A stretch of 64,000 nt of DNA from Trichopria drosophilae (Eukaryota; Arthropoda; Insecta; Hymenoptera; Diapriidae): positions 107,025,501-107,089,500 of the forward strand of contig CM059586.1 in assembly GCA_030407085.1 (NCBI GenBank). The letters are read 5' to 3'. Shown here one piece after another: positions 4,380-32,790 of the stretch. A program made the position numbers and the translations under genes. Each line of letters opens with the position of its first letter. The first letter of the stretch is position 1. Under the pieces are notes generated by a model that was given only the letters and a program-made list of their open reading frames with translations, did not search any database and was not told the DNA's origin.

Positions 4380-4437
4380 ATGGCAGATTTCAAAAAGGTT
4401 ACCCATTGCATCTTCGACATGGATGGATTAATTCTTG
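4380..4437 (+). CDS. Gs1l: Exon 1: start codon and HAD motif I
   Basis: It encodes 19 residues, [19 protein letters not shown], plus the first base of codon 20. The ATG sits in gacaATGg, a good eukaryotic context. The donor is CTTG/GTACGG. The nucleophile Asp13 and Asp15 are here, so both cap isoforms share the catalytic loop. The exon breaks one residue before the conserved Asp of the family's DG..LD(T/S)E element, and that residue is therefore set by which cap exon is spliced on. Confidence 0.9.
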
Positions 4438-7400
4438 GTACGGTCACTCATATCTTATCAAGAATCTAACGGCTAGTGTAATTTTGTTAAAATATAAATA
4501 TTTTATACTATTTTTTATTTTCATAGTGTGACATTTCTCCATATGCAACATATTGACATTTTGAACTTTTATCGGCATGTTTTATATAGAAATAGTTGTC
4601 GATTAATGTTTCAAATAGTTGTAAAAACCTTATAAAATTTAAAACTTTCCTTTAACGTAATTTTTAGTATTATATATGTAGAATTTTTAGATTTATCTCC
4701 TGTATTAGCCTTTCGCTTACTTTCTTCATCTGTGACGAAGATCTACAAAAATTTATAAAGAACTTTATTTCTTATATTAGTAATAAGAAATTTACTTTAA
4801 AAATGTGTAAATTGCAAGATGTTTTTTGCCGTTACTTCGAACCATGAATATTTTAAAATAAATCAAGAAATGTTTATTTGAAAATCTCTTTTAATCTGAG
4901 GATTTATTTATTTTCTTCCGTCTATTAATTAAGGTTACGGTCCACAACAGGCGTCAAATGATAAACGAAGACCAAAAAAATTGAATTGAAAAAATGTCCA
5001 AATAAACATTTCTTGATTTATTATGTGTAAATTTTAATTAATTACATATGTACCAATTTTTAGTAAAATGACAAAATTTATATGTAAATAATTCCCAATT
5101 TCGGAAAGGTAAGACGATTGAAATATTTTTTTATTAGCTTAATCGCAAGTGACGCAGGAAGATATCGTTTATTATGAACTTGCTCTTAATTGAAATATTA
5201 CTTTAGACGATTGTACAATAAGTGGAAAATTTTATTATTGCCTCAAGATAAATAATTGCTTATGTAAAGTTTATAATGCAATTGTATTAACACTGACGTA
5301 TTTCCTTGTTGATATATTGTGTAATCTTTCGATATGATATTAACGAGTATATTACAACTATTACATATTGTAAATGATTAAGCAACAAAGTTTCATTGAA
5401 ATATGTAACTTTATATTTAAGATTAAAGCATAATTAAATTCTTGTTTTACCTTTTATTTCATTCAGATGAAATTATTATGAATAACAATTAATTTTCCAT
5501 AATATATTTTAAAACGATTGTCTTTGCTATATGTTAAACATGATTAATCCTTTCAGTCATGAATTTTTCCAGTGGTTTTTTTCTTAAATTCGGTATAAAG
5601 GGGGAGCTGCCGATAACAAGTGACAAAATTCAAAATGGCGGATCTATGTAATATAAGAATTTTTGTCGGCCATATTGGATCCGCCATTTTGAATTTTACT
5701 GCAAAGAAAAGTTACCTTAAATAGCCATTTTTTTTTCAAATTTGAAAACAAGTTTCCAACGCTTGTTTTAAACTAAAAAACAAATTTTAAATTTAGGCTA
5801 CATGCATGAAAAGTTAGTCAATATATTCTAGTTTAAGAATCAATTTATAGGAAATTGCAACAATACAATATTTATGATAGTATTTCATTTCGAAACAGTC
5901 GAATAACATTGGCGACCCATTTCAGTGTACTTTTCAGAAGAATCACCCATATAGAAAATTCAAAATGGCGGATCTATGTAATAAGACAGAATTTTTGTCG
6001 GCCATATTGGATCCGCCATTTTGTATATAGGTGATTCTTCTGAAAAGTACACTGAAACGTGTCGCCAATGTTATTTGACTGTTTCGAAATGAAATACTAT
6101 CATAAATATTATATTGTTGCAATTTCCTATAAATTGATTCTTAAACTAGAATATATTGACTAACTTTTCATGCATGTAGCCTAAATTTAAAATTTGTTTT
6201 TTAGTTTAAAACGAGTGTTGGAAACTTGATCTCAAATTTGAACAAAAATGGCTATTTAATGTATTTCTTTGCAGTAAAGTAACATAAAAATATAAATAAT
6301 TTTTTGCGATGCTTTAAAAATTACTTTCAACTATGCTCTTTATAATTATTACGTATAAATGTTGTTTTTATATCTTATATCACTGCTTAATGTTTGTGTT
6401 TCTTTGCGAGTAAAAATTCCGGGTGATCTTCGAAGCCTCTCATTTTTGGGAATAAAAGTGAATCAACGTATTATAAATAAATGCTACTGCCATAAAACTT
6501 AAATATTCATTGGTCCTAAAAAGATATTATAACGATATTTGTTTACATCATTCTGTTATTTAATAACATTCAATAATAGGTTGATTTGTGATCTCCGAAA
6601 TCTTTTTATAAAATATTTATTTTAATTGCAAAAGTTGATCATATTCACTTGAAACTTATTATTCGGGGGTTTTTGAGGTCGTCGAATTCAAATGTGATGT
6701 CAGATTTTTAAATTTCAAAATGGCGGATCTAATATGGCGACCAAAAATTGTAACAGTTGATCATATTCGCTTGGAACTTATTACTCGGGGATTTTTGGGG
6801 TCGCTGAATCCAAACGTGATGTCAGATTTTTAAATTTCAAAATGGCCGATCCAATATGGCGACCAAAAATTGTACCAAATTCGATAAAGACATAATTCGA
6901 TTCAACGAAATGAGCTGTTACGATTGTCCAATGAAACAAAATTGCGTACATTATCATTTGGGAGAATTAAAATTTGTGAATAACGAGTTTGAAAAGAAAA
7001 GTAAGAAAATTGCGACTAGAAAAACTCGCAAACTTCTAGCAAACAACCGAAAAGGAAAACCAGAAAATAATATTGTATTATAAGAATGTAATATTGTATT
7101 AAATAGTATTTGTAAATATTGTTTTTTGCATTGGTCTAAATAAATAATTATTAATTGTAAATTTTAAACACTTGAATTTTAGAATTCGGTCCGCCATATT
7201 GGATCCGAGATCTTGAATTCAGTCATAATGGATCCGCCATCTTTAAGTTGAAATATTTAAAAATTTATAATCGTCGACTAACATAATTTGTGATTTTTAT
7301 ACGTATATTGACTAATATTTAGCGTGCAATATAATAATATTCTTCATTTAACCCTTTGCGGCATAGTGGTACATACGTTGTACCACCTAGATTTATTCAC

Positions 7401-10400
7401 ATTTCCTTACAATTATTATTAACGAATAAAATTGAAAAAAACTGCATTTTTTTCCAATAAATTCATTTTTGCAAACTGCACAAGGTTTTTTTAACTGTAG
7501 ATTATTTATGAGGGTTTTTGGGGTCCCTAATCACGAATCCAACGTTAGTTTTACCAAATTCAAAATGGCGGATCCAATATGGCGGCCAACAAAATTTTAA
7601 AATGCCTTAATTTCAACAAAGTTTGCTACTCGGGGGTTTTGGGAGTTGCTGATTACGAATCCGATGTTAGTTTTACCAAATTCAGAATTGTGGATCCAAT
7701 ATGCGGGTCAAAAAAATTTTAAAATGTCTCATTTTTAACAAAATTTGTTACTCGATGGTTTTCGGGATCTCTGATTTCGTTAATTTACCAAATCCATTGA
7801 ATCCGGAATTTGAGAATATTATCCTCGGATTCGTAATCAGCGCTCCTGAAAATCCTCCGATATAAAATTTTCTACAAATGGAGTCGTTTGTAAAATGTTT
7901 GTCCGGCAAGTTTTGATCTGCCATTTTTAACTTGTTAAACATAATAACGGATAACTTGAAGTCGTTTTCAAAATTTTTGGCTGATAATATCGATTTACCG
8001 AAAACTCCCTAGTAACAAATTTCAAGCGAATCTGACGAATTGTGAAAAATTCGTCCTCCATATTGAATCCGCCATTTTTAATTTTCAAAATCTGACTTCA
8101 AATTCGTAATCAGCGACCCCAAAAACTCCCGAATAACAAATTTCAGCTATTTTCCATGTAAAGAAAAATGTATGCCGCAAAGGGTTAATATATAATCAAT
8201 AATTAAAATTTAAGAATGGCATAGCATTAATAATAACAATCATGAATTTTGCGCAACATTTGATTCTTACTTCAGAACGTATCCAGAACATATTTCACAT
8301 AAAAAAAAAATTATTTCGATGAAAAATTTGTTTGTTAAAAAATTGCGAAAACATGTACTTTTCAGGAGAATCAACTGATATTGTCAAATAATTTCTTTTG
8401 AAAATTATGCTTTTTTGAAAATAATTTCTTATTAACAATAATTATTTTACATAATTATGCTACATTATTACTTTTTAATAACATTTATCAGAGTCTTAGG
8501 AAGGGCAGGAACAAGAAACCGTAACAAAATCGTTGACGAACCGCTCATAAATAATGAGAAGTTTATACCATGTTTATCGCTGAGACTGAAAGGGTTAAAC
8601 AGTCGGTTATTAGTTAATCAGTTGCTTACTTTTCCTCATTTTTCACACATCCCCTGCTTTTACGGGTTCGTTTCATTAGTTTTTGAGTTCAAAACTAAAT
8701 CAATTTCATTCTTTTTGTAGAATTAGGGGAGAGTCCAGTAGCCTGACCACCTAACCATTTTCGAATATAACTTATTCTTCGCGACTTTAACAATTAATAG
8801 AAAGTATTAAAAATAATATTTGTATTATATTGAATGCATCCGTGGAGAATTTGAAGACAAAATAGCGAATCTGTTAAAGAATTGCATCCTTTTCGTTGCT
8901 CATAAAATTGGTTACGCTACTGTACTTGTCCGGTAGCCCAACCACTCAATAACTGAACTTGTATATAGTAAAAATGCATTATTAAATACTTATAATGGAC
9001 TTTTATTGGAAATAAAATAATATTTACATACCCCATTCTTTAATATAACTTAAAATAGATGCAGTAAGCAATGTAATAAACATATCGTTAAAAAAGTTTT
9101 TTCATGAAATTTTTAAAACTATTGAACATAAATATAATTTTTTCTTGCTCTTTTGCCTTCGCAGTTTCGTAAATGACATTGTCCATGAAAATTCCAGAGT
9201 GTTCTACTCGTCTCTTTATTATTAAAAAATTATTACTATTATTATTATTGAAAAATAAAATTATTGTTAAAAAATAGCTGTATTTTTTAAAAATATAATG
9301 TAGAAAATTACGTACTCAAGATCTAGTAATTTCCGTAACTGTTATTAGAATTATTTATTTCCTAAATAAATCTATAAATCACTTCACATAACTAAAGCCG
9401 GCGTACAATGTGTAATTTTAATTTCGTGTCAGTCTGTTCACGAGAGAATTTTTATGAAGAATAAACGAAAAAAACAAATTACATTTAAGCTTAATTTCAT
9501 TACTGAAGTCAAGTTAGCTTTTAAAATTGTTAGATAAGCAATATTTTTACCGGTCGGGGGTACCGGAAAGTATGTATGAGCCGTGAAATTGTTATTTTAA
9601 ACAAATGAGACATAAAAAATAGTTTTTATAGCCAAAATCGAAAGCTGAGGGATAAATGTTTGTGTAGACACAACGATAATTAGCTTATTTATTATATGAT
9701 AATAAATATTAACTGCAAAACTTACCTATTTTTATTTAAATGTTCATTTTATGAGTTTGAAGATTAAAAACTTATGCCATACCATTAAAGTAAAGAAAAA
9801 TAGCTTCCTATTCTCAAATTTACAGTTTTGTGTAGTGTCTTTACATTCTTAGAACTAATTAGTGCTCGGGTCTACCGGACTCTCCCCTAAATCACATGAA
9901 TTAACCCGTTTTGTCCTGAAATGCCCTAAATTTTGACTTCTTTTCATCAGGTGCTTTCTCATGGAGAAAGTCATTCAATCGTTTTGATATAATCACACAT
10001 ATTGTATTTTTTCTCGAACTTTCTAAAACCGGTTTCAGATTGACCATATCTGCCGCCATTTTTTTACTATGGCGGTTTAAACATAAAAAAATCGTGAATT
10101 TTGAAAAAATTTGTTCAAATCGTATTTTTTAACAGGAAACCGTATTGGAATCAAGCTGAATCTCTGTATCTAGTGGAGTAAATAGTTGTACTAAAAGATA
10201 GGATGGTTATTAATTCACCATTCAAAATGGCGTCTTCAAAATGGCGGTTCTCAGTGAACATTTTGTTGAAAAATGTCTGGACGCTCTAACTGAACAATTA
10301 TGAGCTTGTTTTAAAAAATGCTAAGAATAAAAAATTCTTAGAATTCGTCGAGAAATATAGTGAATTTTTTTTTAGATTTTCTAAATGAATTTTTGAGCAA

Positions 10401-13276
10401 TTTTTTTCAAAATTTTTTTCAAAATTGTAATTTTTTTTTCGAAAAATTCTGAACAAAATTTAGTGCATTTTCTGATGAATTCTAAGAGCTTAATTTAAAA
10501 AATCTGAAAAAATTCCACTATATTTCTCAATGAATTTTAAGAACTTTTCATTGTCAACATTTTTTTAAAAAGCTCGTAGCTTTTGAGTTAGATCGTCCAG
10601 AAATTTTTCAATAAAATTTTGACTGAGAACCGCCATTATAAAGCCGCCATTTTTAATGTAGAATTAATAACCATCCTATCTTTTAGTGTAACTAATTACT
10701 CCACCAGATACAGAGACTTAGCTTGTTCCGAACACGGTTTCCTGTTCAAAAATACGATTATTTGAAGAAATTTTTTCAAAATTCACAATTTTTGTATGTT
10801 TAAACTGCCATAGTAAAAAAATGGCGGCAGATATGATCAATCTGAAACCAGATTTAGAAAGTTTGAGAAAAAATACAATAGTTATGGTTATATCAAAACG
10901 ATTGAGTGAATTTTTTCCCTAAGAAAGCACCTGATGAAAAGAAGTCAAAATTTACGGCATTTCAGGACAAAACGGGTTAAGAGTGATGTAAAACATTTTA
11001 AAACTCGTTTAATTATTTTTATATTCTTGTTTATCGACTCGTTTACTGTATCACCATCTAGAACATTTTTGTTCGAAATATAATTTTATCAGTCGTCATA
11101 AAAGTGTAGAGATTTCTTACGATCCACAGCAGAATAGTAGTAGTGCAAACTAATCTTATTTTACGACACTTAACGACACTACCTCTCGATAGCGTTATTT
11201 GCCTATAGTCAGAAAAATACTGTTTAAGATATATTCGAATGATTTATTTAAATATTATTTTTACAAATATCAACGAACCCGCAGGTACCGAATCGCTGTA
11301 CACATTAGCCGTTGATCGCATAATTTGCAAATACGGAAAGAAAATGACATGGGAACATAAAGGTGCCACAATGGGATTTCAACCCCACATGTTCACCAAA
11401 TATTTGGTTGATACTTTCGAGCTGCCGCTGACGCAAGAGGAAGTCTTAGTCGAGCTGCAGAAAACTTATTGCGAAGTCTTCCCGACTGTCCAAGTTTTAC
11501 CAGGTGACGAGAAATTAGTAAAGTATTAATTTTCTTCCGTTTCTATTGTGCAGATTCGGAGTCGGTTTACAAACGAATATATCAGGCGATATGCTCGACT
11601 TTTGGTTACACGTATTGCGGAGACCTGGCTTTTCAAGTTTTGGGCAGGCCTGAACTTGTCGGCGCACAACTAATAATAGATCATTACAAGTTACCTTTGA
11701 CATTGACTGAGTTTCAAGAGCAATATCATCGATTACAGCGGGAATATTTCACTTGTGTTAATACGATGCCAGGTTAATGACGACTTTCACATCTATACGT
11801 AGCTCGCTCGATTTAGTTACATTTACCTCGATACAAAAAATTACAGAGTTTTAAAAATGTTTAACCACTTCAATGGTAATGGATCATATGTGTACATTTT
11901 GCAATAACTTTTACAATTCTTAATAAATTTCCATGAAACAAAATGGTTGTCAAAATGGGAAAATTCAAAATGGCGAATCCAATATGGCGGCTGTAAATTT
12001 GCTAAATTTATTAAAATGTGCGGTGCACATTTTTCTTTATACCGAAAACTGTTACTCGGGGGGTTTCGAGGTCGCTGATTACGAATCTGAAGTTAGATTT
12101 TGAAAATTCAAAATGGCGGATCCAAGATGGCCGACCGAAATGCGAAAAATTACCCAAACTTTATGAAACTGGGTTCTCGGGGGTTTTCGGGGCCGCTGAT
12201 TATAAATCTGAAATCATATTTTGAAAATTCAAAATGTCGGTTCCAAGATGGCCGATATAAATGTAAAAAATTTACTTGATTTTGACGAAAGTTGGTATTC
12301 GGGAATTTTTTGGGTCGCTGATTACGAATTTCAAGTCAGATTTTGTAAATTCAAAATGGTGGATCCAAGATGGCCGACATAAATGTGAAATATTACTTTA
12401 TTTTTTAAATGATTAATTAAATGTTAAATGATATATTTTAGGAAAAAATGGCACTTTTTTTTTTTAAACAGCTACCACTGAAGTGGTTAAATCATTTGAA
12501 GTCTTGGAAATTTTTGCGAAGGAACTTTTCTCGATAGTTTTTAGAATTTTATGTAGAACTTATTTTATATTGTATATACACAAGGGAAAAAAGTTGCATT
12601 TCGCATCCTGAAACCGCATTGACACGAAAATAACCACATTTTTTATATCGCTTTGTATTTCATACGAACATCATCATTTGCAATGAAAAGCTGAATTAAC
12701 CAGGGTTATGGCAAGTTTCCGAACCTCTTTTGCAAAAGATGTTGGCCATTATTTCGAAAACTTTTTTATAAGAACTAAATTAAAACGATAACTAATTTTT
12801 CCAAAAAGGTGCGGACATATTGCTGCATCATTTGAAAGCAAACAACATTCCAATAGCGCTAGCTACAAGTTCCAGTGCGGAGAGTTACGAATTAAAAACA
12901 AAGAATTGGAAGGCGTTATTCGATCTTTTTCACCATCGAGTACTGGGAGGTTCCGATCCTGAAGTTAAGAACGGAAAACCACACCCGGACATTTTTCTAG
13001 TTGCCGCAGGTCGGTTCGACGATAATCCAGATCCATCAACGGTGAGTATAACCTTTTCCATCGTTTTATGAACGAAAGTAAAAAAATTAATCTTTTTAGT
13101 GTCTGGTATTCGAAGATGCTCCAAACGGTGTCGAAGCTGCTGTCAGCGCCGGCATGCAAGTTGTTATGGTACCTGATCCTAATTTACCCGAACACTATAC
13201 TACCAAAGCGACTCAAGTTTTAAAAAGTCTCGAAGACTTCAAGCCTGAGCAATTTGGACTGCCAAAACGCAATTGA
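4380..13276 (+). CDS. Gs1l: HAD-superfamily phosphatase, pseudouridine-5'-phosphatase / Gs1-like, with duplicated cap exon
   Basis: The five coding exons are 4380-4437, 11285-11503 or 11554-11772 (alternatives), 12809-13041 and 13100-13276. Using one cap exon the CDS is 687 nt, 228 residues, a normal length for the PUDP/HDHD1/Gs1l group, soluble cytosolic C1-cap HAD hydrolases that dephosphorylate pseudouridine 5'-phosphate. Visible motifs: motif I FDMDG (nucleophile Asp13, acid/base Asp15), motif II ATSSS (Thr112/Ser113), motif III GKPHPD (Lys149), motif [10 protein letters not shown] (Glu175, Asp176). The C-terminus EQFGLP is typical of the family. All junctions are GT-AG. Introns are 6847 bp (TE-filled), 50 bp between the twin exons, 1036 bp and 58 bp. 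No signal peptide or membrane segment is seen. Family assignment is strong; the substrate is inferred. Confidence 0.93.
5697..6277. repeat. Near-perfect hairpin, ~290-bp arms
   Basis: The arm beginning TACTGCAAAGAAAAGTTAC returns inverted and ends TTTCTTTGCAGTA at 6277. Blocks such as GCTACATGCATGAAAAG and its complement near 6167-6183 match closely along the whole length. The centre near 5990 is itself a GGATC / GGATCCGCCATTTTG inverted word. A transcript across it (it lies in an intron in sense orientation) would fold into a long dsRNA. Confidence 0.7.
6856..7083 (+). pseudogene. Short Cys/His- and Lys-rich ORF, probable C-terminal remnant of an element-encoded protein
   Basis: This is a 75-codon ORF. 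Its beginning (MATKNCTK) arises from the GGCGACC repeat word, but from about residue 8 onward the sequence is coding-like. It has a [14 protein letters not shown] cluster (residues 19-32, CxxCx5CxxYH-like, possibly zinc binding) followed by a strongly basic tail with KKSKK and RKTRK. The stop is followed 55 bp later by AATAAA (7139-7144), as at the 3' end of a real gene. I do not recognise the protein. A cysteine-rich C-terminus would fit a piggyBac-type transposase and the TTAA element around it, but the motif match is weak. Confidence 0.35.
7348..8188. mobile_element. TTAA-flanked MITE built of head-to-head ~125-bp monomers
   Basis: Its ends are perfect inverted repeats: TTAACCCTTTGCGGCATA at 7348 and TATGCCGCAAAGGGTTAA ending at 8188. 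TTAA plus CCCTTTGC is very like piggyBac termini. The interior has three forward monomers (GGGTTTTTGGGG near 7511, 7636 and 7758, each followed by a degenerate ATTACGAATCC and AATGGCGGATCC) and then inverted ones (near 7831 and 8107, ATTCGTAATCAGCG). It is nested in the 5544-8598 element. There is no transposase. Confidence 0.8.
8726..9887. mobile_element. TA-flanked DNA element with GGGGAGAGTCC termini
   Basis: The left end GGGGAGAGTCCAGTAG (after TA at 8724-8725) and right end CTACCGGACTCTCCCC (before TA at 9888-9889) are inverted repeats with one mismatch. The 1162-bp interior is AT-rich. A second internal copy of the terminal motif (GTCCGGTAGCCCAACCAC) lies near 8929. No transposase is visible. 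TA flanks suggest the Tc1/mariner superfamily; the termini are not ones I recognise. It lies in intron 1 of the phosphatase. Confidence 0.65.
9901..10980. mobile_element. TTAA-flanked foldback element
   Basis: TTAACCCGTTTTGTCCTGAA at 9901 and its complement ending at 10980 are near-perfect inverted repeats. Inversion continues through AAATTTTGACTTCTTTTCATC, the CAGGTGCTTTCT block and the ATGGCGGCAGATATG block, so each arm is about 450-500 bp. There is no coding sequence. The right half has a second copy, about 95% similar by eye, at 27830-28346. Confidence 0.75.
10985..11284 (+). other. Intron 1 tail before the first cap exon
   Basis: This is about 300 bp of non-repetitive intron sequence ending in the acceptor AACGAACCCGCAG at 11284. 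The pyrimidine tract is poor (purines interrupt it), in contrast to the strong tract before the second cap exon. That difference could bias splice choice. No other feature is seen. Confidence 0.4.
11285..11503 (+). CDS. Gs1l: Exon 2a: first alternative cap-domain exon
   Basis: It is 219 nt (73 codons), phase 1 to phase 1, acceptor CCCGCAG/GTACC and donor CCAG/GTGACG. It encodes residues 20-92, beginning [10 protein letters not shown] and ending VQVLP: the flap and helical C1 cap that in HAD phosphatases covers the active site and sets substrate choice. The landmarks MGFQP (31 residues in) and ELPLT align with LGRPE and KLPLT of exon 2b. Residue 20 is Gly (split codon G/GT) where this family normally has Asp. 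The open frame runs 18 nt past the donor before a stop, as expected for intron. Confidence 0.88.
11504..11553 (+). other. 50-nt spacer between the two cap exons
   Basis: It begins GTGACG and ends TTCTATTGTGCAG. A branch-point-like TATTAAT at 11524-11530 lies only ~25 nt from the 5' splice site. Such spacing should hinder splicing of 2a directly to 2b, a known way of enforcing mutually exclusive exons, although insects do splice some introns of this size. Confidence 0.6.
11554..11772 (+). CDS. Gs1l: Exon 2b: second alternative cap-domain exon
   Basis: It is also exactly 219 nt, phase 1 to phase 1, acceptor TTGTGCAG/ATTCG after a good pyrimidine tract, donor CCAG/GTTAAT. It encodes residues 20-92 starting [13 protein letters not shown] and ending CVNTMP. 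It restores Asp20, giving the family-typical DGLILDSE, and has LGRPE followed by ALIID-like helix residues, closer to the usual PUDP cap than exon 2a. Ungapped comparison with 2a gives 16 identities of 73 (including Glu22, Ser23, Tyr25, Gly50 and LPLT at 66-69). It therefore derives from an old tandem exon duplication with strong later divergence. Confidence 0.88.
11861..12490. mobile_element. TTAA-flanked MITE in the intron after exon 2b
   Basis: TTAACCACTTCAATGGTA at 11861 and TACCACTGAAGTGGTTAA ending at 12490 form inverted termini with TTAA at both ends (630 bp). The interior is three direct ~120-bp monomers, each with a TCGCTGATTACGAAT-like block (near 12072, 12192 and 12314) followed by TTCAAAATGGCGGATCCAAG or a variant. 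It makes up most of the 1036-bp intron. Confidence 0.75.
12809..13041 (+). CDS. Gs1l: Exon 3: HAD core with motifs II and III
   Basis: It is 233 nt, acceptor CCAAAAAG/GTGCGG, donor TCAACG/GTGAGT. It encodes codon 93 (completed) to 170: the [22 protein letters not shown] segment with motif II (Thr112, Ser113) and [17 protein letters not shown] with the motif III Lys149. It is shared by both cap isoforms. The frame joins either cap exon at Gly93. Confidence 0.92.
13100..13276 (+). CDS. Gs1l: Exon 4: HAD motif IV and C-terminus
   Basis: It is 177 nt including the TGA, acceptor TCTTTTTAG/TGTCTG after a 58-bp intron. It encodes [19 protein letters not shown], where Glu175-Asp176 are the motif IV metal ligands, then VVMVPDP and the C-terminal EQFGLPKRN. 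It matches the family to the end without truncation. Confidence 0.92.
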
Positions 13277-13355
13277 TGATACGCCACACGTTATTCGAGA
13301 TAAATTAATAGTGTAATAATAATGGACTACGTGAAAGTAGGAAATTATATAAGCA

Positions 13356-13405: not shown

Positions 13406-13503
13406 TTAAGACGACGGAGGGTTGGATGCCACATGTTTAATCTTTGACGCCACATCGTCGGCTGTTAAATCGTTAAGGACTTCGCTACATTCGACTCCGT
13501 GTT
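13406..13503 (-). CDS. NDUFA2: NDUFA2 exon 3
   Basis: It encodes Glu64 (completed) to the stop: [20 protein letters not shown] and a short polar tail ending PPSS. The acceptor is TTTTTTCAG. The TAA stop is at 13408-13406. Confidence 0.93.
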
Positions 13504-13866
13504 CTGAAAAAATAAAACTTGCGAATCTTTTCCAATTACTATTATGATATAATGAAGTAATTACCGAAACGAGCGAAGAGCTTTGGTTGCACTTGTGAGC
13601 ACTCGCGAATTAAAATTGGGAGTGTTGGATTCTTTAGTTTCATAGGTACATATTGAGTTTCGATAAAATCTCTGTAAAATATAAGAATTTTTATTTAATT
13701 TCTAACCTATATAGTGATCTGATCAAACGATCATTTGATGTGATCGGTACAAAAGATACGAACTATTATAAAAAAACTTTTACCTAACACCTTTACTGGA
13801 TTTGGAAGTTTGACAGAGTATTATCCTTAATTCTTTTAATTTTGAACCAAATTTCATGGTAGCCAT
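13406..13866 (-). CDS. NDUFA2: NDUFA2, NADH dehydrogenase (ubiquinone) 1 alpha subcomplex subunit 2 (CI-B8)
   Basis: Three exons on the minus strand: 13866-13784, 13671-13565 and 13503-13406. Introns are 112 and 61 bp, both GT-AG. The CDS is 288 nt, 95 residues, close to the family's usual ~100. NDUFA2 is a nuclear-encoded accessory subunit of the matrix arm of mitochondrial complex I with a thioredoxin-like fold. Recognisable blocks are [33 protein letters not shown] and [12 protein letters not shown]. Cys18 and Cys52 have the 34-residue spacing of the paired cysteines of the human protein. No cleavable presequence is seen, as usual for this subunit. Met1 was chosen over Met4 because it is the first in-frame ATG and has good context. 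The gene is convergent with the phosphatase. Confidence 0.95.
13565..13671 (-). CDS. NDUFA2: NDUFA2 exon 2
   Basis: It encodes from the last base of Arg28 to Phe63 plus one base, including LPILIRECS with Cys52 and QPKLFARF. The acceptor is ATTTTACAG and the donor CGTTTCG/GTAATT. Confidence 0.95.
13784..13866 (-). CDS. NDUFA2: NDUFA2 exon 1
   Basis: It encodes [18 protein letters not shown]... to Val27 plus two bases of Arg28. The donor is TTAG/GTAAAAG. It contains the first conserved cysteine (Cys18). Confidence 0.93.
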
Positions 13867-13990
13867 TTTCCAAAATGTTACTCGATCAGCTGATCGGCAT
13901 GAATTATTGAGATTAGAGATGATCCCATTCCAGGGAATTTAAACGACGTAAGTGCCTCTACCCGCCAAAAGGAGAATTGTAAAACGTTAT
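13867..13990 (-). promoter_or_regulatory. Probable NDUFA2 promoter/5' UTR with a 14-bp palindrome
   Basis: The perfect palindrome CGATCAGCTGATCG (13883-13896) lies 17 bp upstream of the ATG. It contains an E-box-like CAGCTG core. No TATA box is seen. The palindrome may be a regulatory site or chance; CGATCA/TGATCG-like pieces also occur in intron 1. Confidence 0.3.
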
Positions 13991-19712: not shown

Positions 19713-21480
19713 TTACTGTGATTCAAAACTTCGGATTTTGTTAACAATAACGGCGTGTTCTTTAAGGATTGAAATATTGTCAAGATATAATATAGATTTC
19801 AGAGTACACGGAAGAGCAACGTTTTCATTAGTTAGTTTGGATAATAAATTTAAGCTTGTGACACAAAATTGGGGACATTCAAATATGACATGATCATCCG
19901 TGCCTATTTCGTCATCATATTTGCATTTGGGAGAGTCCACGACTTTTATTTTATATAAATTAGCAGTATATTCCCAATGTCTAGATTTCATTCTGTTTAT
20001 AATGTTCATGGATTCTCTGTCCAATTTTTAATTTTTTTCCAAGGATGTTTTTTTGAAAAGTAATTAGATAGAAGGAAAGTTTGATCCTTAACCTTGAAAT
20101 CCTCAATTAAGTAATTTTGAAAATTGTTATTAAAACTAGATTGAATTGCTTCAGTGAAATTTAGCCAATGTGTTTTATATTTAATATTATAATTAGGATT
20201 TTGTTGAAGTGATATTTTTGTGAGCAGAGCACCATATTAAGATGATTTTATTTAAAATTAAGGATAGTTCGAATTTGATGTCGTAAAAAATTGTGTAAAT
20301 ATTATGTATTTTATGTAATTCTTTCGAAATAATATTCAGGGATTCTAATGAATCTGTAATAATTAAAACTTTCCCCAAGTTTTGTATTTGACTGTATCAT
20401 ATAGCGTATCATAATGGCTACTGCTTCCGATTCAAACGAACTTAGATCGTCATTTATGCGATGTTTACATAAAAAATTTTTATTTGCATGAAAAATTGCC
20501 ATAGCAATTCTCTTTATACCCAATTGCTTGCGGTTAATCGATGCAGCGTCCATATAAATCTGGTGATAGTCTAGAAATCTGATCCCTAAATGATGGTTAA
20601 AGGAGTTGGGAGATTTGCGACCCATGGCCCTCTTGCCACTATCTGTAACTATTTCACAGGAATGAAATAACATCGTAGGTGGATATTCAATAGAAGGAGG
20701 AATTGAAGAATTCCCTATTGTTAGAAAAGGCAGCATGAATATCGGGACAAATTTTTTTTGTGTTTGTTTATTGATTTTTTCTTAATTTCATCTGAAAGCT
20801 TTAATTTGCTAATAATGAATTGGTTTTCTGTTGCCGCTTTAGATATCAATATATATATTTAGAATTGATTTTGGTAATATCTAATTCAATTGCGGTTATA
20901 TTAGATAGTTTGTAAATTACTGGCGTTGGAGTAGATTTCATCACACCTAAACAGGTTCTTAAGATTGCTAATTGAAGAGTTTTAATTTTAGGAGTTGGAA
21001 TAACATGTGTGACCCCGCAATAATATATAGGTTGACAGAAACCTTTATAAATATTAATTAGGTGGCTGGGGTATGCTCCCCATCTCACTTTGCTGATGCA
21101 TTTTATTAAAACATTATGTGCCATATTGGCTTTTTTATAGGAATCTTCTACAGGGTTTTTCCAACTCAGTTTAGTGTAAAAAATGACACCCAAGAATTTC
21201 ACTGAATTTGAGTTACTTATTTTGGTGCCCTGTAGAGAGATTGTAATTTCCTTAAGATTAGTATTTTACTTGTAAAAATAATAAAATTTGTTTTGTTAGT
21301 GGCTATAGCGTTAGCGGTATTGAGAGAATGGTGTGATGTGTAAATTGCACAATCAGCAAATTGTACATTTTTTGTATGGTCACCTATATGTTATTTTGTA
21401 TTTATCTAATATAAAAATTAAAAAGCAGAGGGCTAAGAACAGACCCTTGAGGAAGTCAGCCCATTTTATTATTGTATAAA
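19713..21480 (-). pseudogene. Decayed non-LTR retrotransposon (LINE): reverse transcriptase, RNase H and C-terminal remnants
   Basis: Reading down the minus strand: RT motif PQGSVLSPLLFNFY (from 21452), a broken catalytic box FADC (21360-21349, normally F/YADD), the RT thumb KFLGVIFYTKLSW followed by CISKVRWGAYPS and IYKGFCQPIYYCG (21202-20846), an RNase H segment with IYMDAAS and DDLSSFESEAVAI (20736-20311), a second RNase H piece with LIITDSLESLNIIS and ILIWCSAHKN (20378-20193), and a tail with RMKSRHWEYTANLYKIKV and TDDHVIFECPQF (20024-19713). RT followed by RNase H is the layout of the Jockey/R1/LOA/I-type LINE group. Stops and frameshifts break it throughout. The 5' half is absent. Confidence 0.85.
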
Positions 21481-25978: not shown

Positions 25979-26199
25979 CTTATTCAGAATTATTCTGTAT
26001 CATTCGGTGAAGCATACACGTTTGAAAAAAAATACCCACACCATGCCATGAAACCTGGACTTTTTTATTCCGAAATCTCAACAACAATAATTGATACCTT
26101 TGTCTATTTACTGACTTTTTGCGAGTTAACAGGAATTAATTCAGTATATTGCGAATGTATCAACGGTACCTGGCAGGTACTGTCCTAACCGCTCAACAG

Positions 26200-32034: not shown

Positions 32035-32790
32035 AAAAAAAAAATATTTTTTAAAGTTTTGAATGTTTTTTTTTAGTGCAAATGTCGTCAATTTTTAATA
32101 ATTTTGTGAGAATGGCATCAAAACTTTCATTCATTTTTTTGCTTCAAACGTATTATAGTATTATAGTATTCGCTCAAAATTCTTATAAGGGGTAATTGGA
32201 ATAGCTGGTTATGAATTTGAAATATTCGTGATGTAAGCAGGTAGTCTTTTTTAAAAATCAACAACCCCCTAGTAACAAATTTAAGCGAATACTACAGATA
32301 TTTGTAAAAAGTGTCCGCCATATTGGATTCGACATTCGAAAAATTCATCAAATTTAAAAAAGAACAACTTGAAATTCATAACCAGCAACCTCAATATTAC
32401 TCCTTATAAGAATTTGGAGCGAATACTATACAGATTTTTAAAAATCGTCCGCCATATTGGAACCGCCATTTTGAATTTTCAAAAAGATACTTCAAATTAA
32501 CAATCAGCGACCTCAATAACCACCTGAGAACAATTTTGAGTGATCACGATTAATATTTTTTAAAATCGTCAGCCATATTGTATTAGACATTTTGTATGTT
32601 CAAAAAACAACTTCAAATTTGTAATTAGTGACCCCAGACACCCTCCAGTAACAATTTTCGACCAAATCCAATGATGTTTGAACTAAAAAGATGAATGAAA
32701 GTTTTGAGGTCATTCCCACAAAAGTATTAAAATTTGACGACATTTGCACTTAAAAAAACCATTCAAAACTTAAAAAAAAAAAATTTTTGT
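32035..32790. mobile_element. Inverted-repeat element carrying CCGCCATATTGG monomers
   Basis: TTTTTAAAGTTTTGAATG and TGCAAATGTCGTCAA (32050-32095) return inverted as TTGACGACATTTGCA and CATTCAAAACTTAAAA (32735-32775). ATGAATGAAAGTTTTGA also pairs with TCAAAACTTTCATTCAT. The middle holds four copies of the AGCAACC / GTCCGCCATATTGGA monomer. It is a MITE with no coding content. Confidence 0.6.

What the first reader, a model, noticed from the sequence alone, without database searches (positions are those of the whole stretch)
11285..11772. Two interchangeable cap-domain exons in one HAD phosphatase gene
Seen: two adjacent ORF blocks, each exactly 219 bp and phase 1 to phase 1, with consensus splice sites. 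They align without gaps at 16 of 73 residues, between a single motif I exon and single motif II-IV exons. Known: in C1-type HAD phosphatases the cap inserted after motif I governs substrate choice. Inference: alternative splicing gives two enzymes with one catalytic core and two different caps, so one gene could act on two phosphorylated substrates. The low identity with perfect frame conservation implies old duplication and long selection on both copies.
Basis: partly seen in the sequence, partly recalled or inferred. Interest (0 to 1): 0.87.

Follow-up and report, generated by a model that had tools for sequence, protein, structure and literature searches.

The report
Two swappable lids, one phosphatase gene
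A wasp gene for a phosphate-removing enzyme carries two alternative versions of the lid that helps choose what the enzyme acts on; the same arrangement was already described in a fruit fly and looks old in insects, but whether the two lids give two different enzyme jobs is untested.

Summary
Two 219-nt phase-1 exons (11285-11503, 11554-11772), 16 of 73 residues identical, lie between the motif I exon and the motif II-IV exons. Only three open AG|219|GT blocks exist in 64 kb, both strands; two are these. The gene is pseudouridine-5'-phosphatase (PUDP/HDHD1; Drosophila Gs1l) of a wasp. In nine other hymenopterans the database lists one isoform with cap A and one with cap B, identical outside the cap. 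The alternation is published for Drosophila montana Gs1l from cloned cDNAs (PMC5953924), so the phenomenon is not new. Added here: wasp cap B groups with fly, beetle and cockroach second caps (98/94), pointing to an old duplication, though a separate hymenopteran one is only marginally rejected (p 0.046, 0.053). Decapod models carry at least five cap types, apparently collinear. The caps differ at substrate-specificity loop 5 (A: M-G-F/L; B: L-G-R-P-E). In Hymenoptera cap B is the more conserved, so neither looks decayed. A second substrate is plausible but untested; the fly authors argued for equivalent function. The 50-nt A-B intron suggests steric exclusion. No RNA evidence for this species was available.

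The parts
4380..4437 (+). Coding part of exon 1: start codon and HAD motif I (FDMDG); donor TTG|GTACGG
11285..11503 (+). Cap exon A, 219 nt, loop 5 reads T-M-G-F-Q
11504..11553 (+). 50-nt intron between cap exons; only YTRAY-type branch motif 26 nt from the cap A donor; retention runs into a stop ending at 11529
11554..11772 (+). Cap exon B, 219 nt, loop 5 reads V-L-G-R-P-E
12809..13041 (+). Shared exon with HAD motifs II (ATSS) and III (GKPHPD)
   Evidence: motif names recalled
13100..13276 (+). Shared last coding exon with HAD motif IV (FEDAPNG) and stop
   Evidence: motif name recalled

Best explanation
This is the pseudouridine-5'-phosphatase (PUDP/HDHD1/Gs1l) gene of a wasp whose C1 cap is encoded by two tandem, alternatively used exons. 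Splicing joins the motif I exon to cap A or cap B and then to one shared exon pair with motifs II-IV, giving two 228-aa enzymes with one catalytic core and two lids (anatomy shown here; use of both exons shown in relatives, inferred for this species). The pair is old: cap B most likely arose by tandem exon duplication before flies, wasps, beetles and cockroaches separated, and both copies have been kept (supported, not proven). Cap A keeps the more PUDP-like lid and probably the pseudouridine-5'-phosphate activity; cap B carries a different specificity loop and probably favours another small phosphorylated substrate (inferred). Inclusion of both caps is probably hindered by the 50-nt intron between them, too short for the cap A donor and the cap B branch site to be used together (inferred).
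For: Anatomy. Human PUDP is the best solved match of both isoforms. In 9 of 9 single-cap A/B pairs from named hymenopterans the two proteins do not differ outside residues 19-98 (isoform names). D. montana cDNAs with one or the other exon. The window keeps 11 of 11 positions invariant among 16 hymenopteran A caps and 22 of 22 invariant among 13 B caps. Cap tree groups wasp, fly, beetle and cockroach B caps, 98/94. Models of relatives place the differing residues in the helix-loop-helix, the site named substrate specificity loop 5 (PMC3607736 passages). In Cephus, isoform A scores 272.5 and isoform B 235.5 bits against human PUDP with the same core. Short intron; OGDH parallel with branch points 25-41 nt from the donor: PMC7969005 passages.
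Against: No RNA data for this species. The fly authors expect equivalent function. A separate hymenopteran duplication is only marginally rejected (p 0.046; 0.053), and wasp B with the cockroach second cap alone is weak (84/66). In the window the two isoforms score nearly alike against human PUDP (245.5 and 238.8 bits); in Chelonus and Blattella the B cap is closer to the human cap than the other cap. Double-cap protein models exist in several species. The branch site is a motif guess; a neighbouring 61-nt intron has no such motif, and a 58-nt intron of this gene is presumably spliced.
Confidence: 0.7

Rival explanations
1. Both isoforms act on the same substrate; the caps differ in stability, temperature response, kinetics or regulation, and the choice tunes activity (for example in cold acclimation) instead of changing the substrate.
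For: The D. montana authors found the surroundings of the metal site conserved in both and expected equivalent function; [quoted passage not shown]
Against: Seven positions are near-fixed for different residues in hymenopteran A and B caps, two of them in loop 5 (M/L before and F/R after the Gly); L-G-R-P-E is invariant in 17 of 17 hymenopteran B proteins aligned.
Confidence: 0.35
2. The cap exon was duplicated separately in wasps and in flies (and again in moths and decapods); the likeness of wasp B and fly B is convergence or long-branch attraction.
For: Holding wasp A and B together is rejected only marginally or not (p 0.046; 0.053); fly A and B together p 0.006 but 0.12 with fewer rows. 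Both moth caps of Choristoneura group with each other, 99/86, and moth or decapod caps as one clade are not rejected (p 0.375 and 0.381), so separate duplications do seem to occur. Only 73 columns.
Against: B clade 98/94, 92/96 in the larger set, 98/90 without beetle and cockroach second caps; shared order (B second) and shared loop signature G-x-x-E.
Confidence: 0.25
3. Both exons are often included together, giving a 301-aa enzyme with two caps.
For: Both exons are multiples of 3 and the joined frame is open; 28 of 218 collected proteins carry two or three caps side by side before one core.
Against: In D. montana 9 of 12 long clones kept the intron with a stop, and the other 3 looked like artefacts to the authors. 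The Trichogramma kaykai two-cap model lacks two residues at the cap junction, as a prediction error would.
Confidence: 0.07
4. One of the two exons is a dead or decaying copy in this species.
For: Window cap A has a long branch (1.07) and Gly at its first residue, where D or N is usual in the hymenopteran A caps.
Against: Both frames open; clade-invariant residues kept in both; cap B 75% identical to Leptopilina.
Confidence: 0.04

Closest known systems
Drosophila Gs1-like (Gs1l) alternative exons 2 and 3 (PMC5953924)
   Same: Same gene family; two tandem exons for residues 25-94, one or the other spliced between shared exons, products of equal length; retained intermediate intron brings a stop.
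   Different: Fly, one species; no comparison across orders and no loop-5 analysis in the parts I read. Orthology of the exon pair is likely but not proven.
Human PUDP/HDHD1 (PDB 3L5K, 9M7L)
   Same: Best solved match of both isoforms and of the models of relatives.
   Different: The D. montana paper lists four human isoforms, none with a second complete cap.
OGDH mutually exclusive exons 4a/4b (PMC7969005)
   Same: An enzyme with a duplicated exon pair; exclusion enforced by a branch point close to the donor of a short intron (passages).
   Different: Unrelated protein; the swapped exon there sets Ca2+ sensitivity; branch points were mapped there, only guessed here.
Thermotoga TM_1254 phosphatase (PDB 3KBB)
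   Same: Loop reads G-x-P-E-R-x-G as in Cephus cap B; third-best solved match of each of the four isoforms tried.
   Different: Bacterial, single cap; Cephus A and B score alike against it (84.4 and 85.3 bits), so only a lead.

Membership tests
PUDP/HDHD1 (HAD subfamily I, C1 cap) | HAD core with cap between motifs I and II; Pfam PF00702/PF13419; human PUDP as best match | tested here: met
PUDP/HDHD1 (HAD subfamily I, C1 cap) | Dephosphorylates pseudouridine-5'-phosphate | not testable with these tools
   needs purified isoforms
Mutually exclusive exon pair | Adjacent homologous exons of equal length and phase with splice sites | tested here: met
Mutually exclusive exon pair | Either exon used, one at a time, in relatives | tested here: met
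   9 of 9 hymenopteran pairs of listed isoforms; published fly cDNAs. Database isoforms are models; their RNA support was not seen
Mutually exclusive exon pair | Double inclusion rare or absent | tested here: inconclusive
   two- and three-cap models exist; fly long clones mostly intron-retaining
Mutually exclusive exon pair | Both exons used in this species | not testable with these tools
   no RNA data
Orthologue of the fly Gs1l exon 2/3 pair | Wasp B groups with fly B, wasp A apart | tested here: inconclusive
   clade 98/94 and 98/90, but AU p for a separate wasp duplication 0.046 and 0.053; D. montana sequences themselves were not seen
Steric exclusion as in OGDH | Branch point closer than about 50 nt to the donor | tested here: inconclusive
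   motif at 26 nt, at most 40 nt possible if the branch site is 10 nt or more from the acceptor; branch point not mapped, threshold taken from vertebrates

The most novel reading that the evidence does not exclude
One housekeeping phosphatase gene has kept, since before the fly, wasp, beetle and cockroach lineages split, two interchangeable substrate-specificity loops chosen by splicing, so that one catalytic core serves two different phosphorylated substrates; crustaceans expanded the same slot to five or more caps. Enzyme specificity would then be encoded by an exon cassette.
Probability: 0.4. Interest if true: 0.82.

Novelty: new member of a known kind. Interest (0 to 1): 0.58.

Why it matters
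Mutually exclusive exons are best known from channels, adhesion molecules and muscle proteins (general knowledge). A metabolic HAD phosphatase whose swapped exon is exactly the cap, with fixed differences at the specificity loop, is a clean natural test of whether splicing can switch an enzyme's substrate: the two proteins differ only within 73 residues. The comparison across wasps, flies, a beetle, a cockroach and decapods turns a single-species splicing report into a testable question about old, maintained enzyme isoforms, and names the residues to exchange.

Tried and rejected
Cap B as a sugar-phosphatase-like cap in general: window isoform B scores higher than A against 3kbb and 3nas, but in Cephus A and B tie on 3kbb and A beats B on 1lvh, while B beats A on 3nas. 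Kept only as a weak lead.

Competing RNA structures as the exclusion mechanism: the fold of 11230-11600 is no stronger than shuffles (z -0.55, 33 of 100 fold at least as well); most inverted repeats found in 10900-13300 involve the repeat-rich intron downstream of cap B. Not excluded for longer range. Exclusion through frame-shift and decay was rejected because both exons are multiples of 3.

Further caps in the window: none convincing; the ORF around 26000-26185 has no Pfam family.

Limits of the homologue searches: best 120 rows listed of 3548 and of 3097, so absence of cap B in any group (bees, ants, vespids) is not shown. One search scored 7 candidates and kept 5.

Rows dropped before trees: two Halyomorpha caps, Aphis, the Artemia second cap, three decapod type-4 caps and a doubled Homarus row; also the Blattella first cap. 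The tree holds them all, with Homarus labels one number off. For the position counts one A cap of other length (Diachasmimorpha) was left out.

Papers: PMC5953924 abstract, passages and sections 6, 8, 10; PMC7969005 and PMC3607736 passages only; PMC3228551 and PMC3303723 searched inside for six terms each without a hit; others only as search listings (long lists were cut). In those listings I saw no paper on wasp or decapod cap exons of this gene; most subscription papers are not held and no supplement could be read.
Full report
What is there. The window carries a plus-strand gene with coding exons at 4380-4437, 11285-11503 (cap A), 11554-11772 (cap B), 12809-13041 and 13100-13276. Each cap exon is 219 nt, phase 1 to phase 1, open in that frame only, with AG before and GT after. 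Either cap joined to the other exons gives an uninterrupted 228-aa protein. Sixteen of 73 residues agree without gaps; 0 of 20,000 shuffles reach this. A scan of the window on both strands for open AG|219|GT phase-1 blocks finds three: the two caps and one unrelated block.

What it is. Both isoforms match human pseudouridine-5'-phosphatase best among solved structures (238.8 bits for B; 245.5 for A) and Pfam PF00702/PF13419. A search with the cap B region kept 5 of 7 candidates, all parasitoid wasps by name: Leptopilina, Copidosoma, Nasonia, Belonocnema, Eretmocerus ('parasitoid' from general knowledge). Within the first 120 relatives the window's cap B is closest to that of Leptopilina heterotoma (75%) and its cap A to that of Trichogramma (51%). 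The source is thus a wasp; the species was not determined.

Two isoforms of one gene in relatives. A profile search (120 rows listed of 3548) returned single-cap proteins of both kinds, named as isoforms, from the same species. In 9 of 9 such pairs compared (Nasonia, Copidosoma, Belonocnema, Phymastichus, Ceratosolen, Chelonus, Diachasmimorpha, Cephus, Cotesia glomerata) the two proteins do not differ outside residues 19-98; a tenth pair, Trichogramma kaykai, sets a single-cap against a two-cap model and also agrees outside. Inside, with a few flanking columns, they share 16 to 24 of 75 to 80 columns. The RNA support of these database models was not seen.

Already in print for a fly. Drosophila montana Gs1l yields cDNAs with exon 2 or exon 3, differing at residues 25-94, and long clones of which 9 of 12 keep the intron between them, which brings a stop (PMC5953924, sections 6, 8, 10 and passages). 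In the window too, retention of the 50-nt intron runs into a stop, ending at 11529.

Age. A second profile search with two-cap proteins (120 rows listed of 3097) brought flies, moths, a beetle (Asbolus), a cockroach (Blattella), Artemia and decapods among others. Of 218 collected proteins, 28 carry two or three cap units side by side before one core; others carry two complete HAD units, which is a different thing. In a tree of caps, hymenopteran B, dipteran B, Asbolus second and Blattella second form one group, 98/94, and 92/96 in the larger set, there with Aphis. Without the beetle and cockroach second caps wasp B and fly B still group (98/90); without wasp B the rest group at 100/98; without fly and beetle B, wasp B with Blattella second is weak (84/66). 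Holding wasp A and B together costs 10.2 log units (p 0.046) or 6.7 (p 0.053); fly A and B 25.0 (p 0.006) or 12.8 (p 0.12); the two beetle caps 30.2 (p 0.001). With 73 columns this favours, but does not prove, one old duplication. The loop signature G-x-x-E points the same way: 14 of 14 hymenopteran B caps (window included), 6 of 7 dipteran B caps (not Glossina), Asbolus second, Blattella second, Aphis and Halyomorpha first, and none of the other listed caps (my reading of the loops). The Blattella first cap does not group with A caps.

Decapods. With numbering of my own, Panulirus models show the orders 1-2-3, 1-3-4, 2-3-4 and 1-2; Cherax 2-3-4, 1-3-4, 1-3 and 2-3; Procambarus 2-3 and 1-2; Palaemon 3-5; Macrobrachium 5-4; Homarus partial 1, then 2-3-5 (sequences). 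These fit one collinear array 1-2-3-5-4 of at least five cap types. Single-cap decapod isoforms are listed too. Whether the multi-cap models are real mRNAs was not testable.

Both caps are under constraint. Among 16 hymenopteran A caps of equal length 11 positions never vary, among 13 B caps 22; the window keeps 11 of 11 and 22 of 22. Over ten species with both caps mean pairwise identity is 50% for A and 64% for B, B higher in 41 of 45 pairs, which are not independent. dN/dS could not be computed.

How it may work. AlphaFold2 models of relatives (P0001 for B, P0023 for A) are confident (pLDDT 94.2 and 94.5) and match human PUDP best. In both, residues 50-53 (49-52 in the window protein) form the loop between two cap helices. 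A helix-loop-helix with a stringently conserved Gly, loop 5, is described as the part of the C1 cap that gives substrate specificity (PMC3607736, passages). That this Gly is the one at window residue 50 is my inference. A caps read M-G-F/L in 18 of 18 (window included), human M-G-K-K, B caps L-G-R-P-E (17 of 17 B proteins). In Cephus isoform A scores 272.5 and B 235.5 bits against human PUDP with the same core. Residue counts to the human cap are higher for A in 9 of 10 equal-length hymenopteran pairs (window 25 to 24 counted among them would make 10 of 11), lower in Chelonus, and lower for the first cap of Blattella. I infer that A keeps the PUDP activity and B prefers another substrate. Against this, the fly authors judged the isoforms equivalent from homology models. 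Cap B of Cephus shares G-x-P-E-R-x-G with Thermotoga TM_1254, only a lead.

Exclusion. The only YTRAY motif in the A-B intron lies 26 nt from the cap A donor; in the 58-nt intron between the shared exons it lies at 49 nt. Even a branch site 10 nt from the acceptor would be 40 nt from the donor. In OGDH, branch points 25-41 nt from the donor, under a proposed threshold near 50 nt, enforce exclusive splicing (PMC7969005, passages). A 61-nt intron of the neighbouring gene has no such motif at all, so the motif is a weak guide, and the insect threshold is unknown to me. Both alternative donors lack G at +5; the pyrimidine tract of B (80%) is richer than those of A (45%) and of the constitutive exons (50% each), so B may be the default choice. 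No unusual RNA fold was found at 11230-11600.

Verdict. The phenomenon is known in Drosophila; the likely age, the decapod arrays and the loop-5 difference are what this analysis adds.

Noticed in passing
window 13409-13938, minus strand: Three exon-like open stretches of a tail-to-tail neighbour; joined they match Pfam PF05047 (L51_S25_CI-B8, 54.2 bits), probably complex I subunit NDUFA2 (name recalled). Its introns are 112 and 61 nt as I drew them.
   Followed up: partly
window 11836-12515: Intron downstream of cap B holds a likely non-autonomous element: 43-nt inverted ends (77% complementary) around a 122-nt tandem array. Similar 121-122-nt arrays lie at 6624-6874, 7510-7776 and 32434-32658.
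   Followed up: partly
decapod proteins P0026, P0088, P0154, P0167 (Panulirus), P0044, P0051 (Cherax), P0122 (Homarus): Cap arrays of at least five types before one core, apparently collinear between species.
   Followed up: partly
proteins with two full HAD units, for example P0121 (Rhipicephalus), P0145 (Eurytemora), P0161 (Halyomorpha): Fusions or tandem copies of the whole enzyme, each unit with its own cap: another route to two caps.
   Followed up: no
window 11284-11287, first residue of isoform A's cap: Gly (GTES) where the other hymenopteran A caps have Asp or Asn; one Procambarus cap (P0113) also has Gly.
   Followed up: no
window 19713-21265, minus strand: Open frames that resemble the end of a non-LTR retrotransposon (recalled likeness); no Pfam match.
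   Followed up: partly
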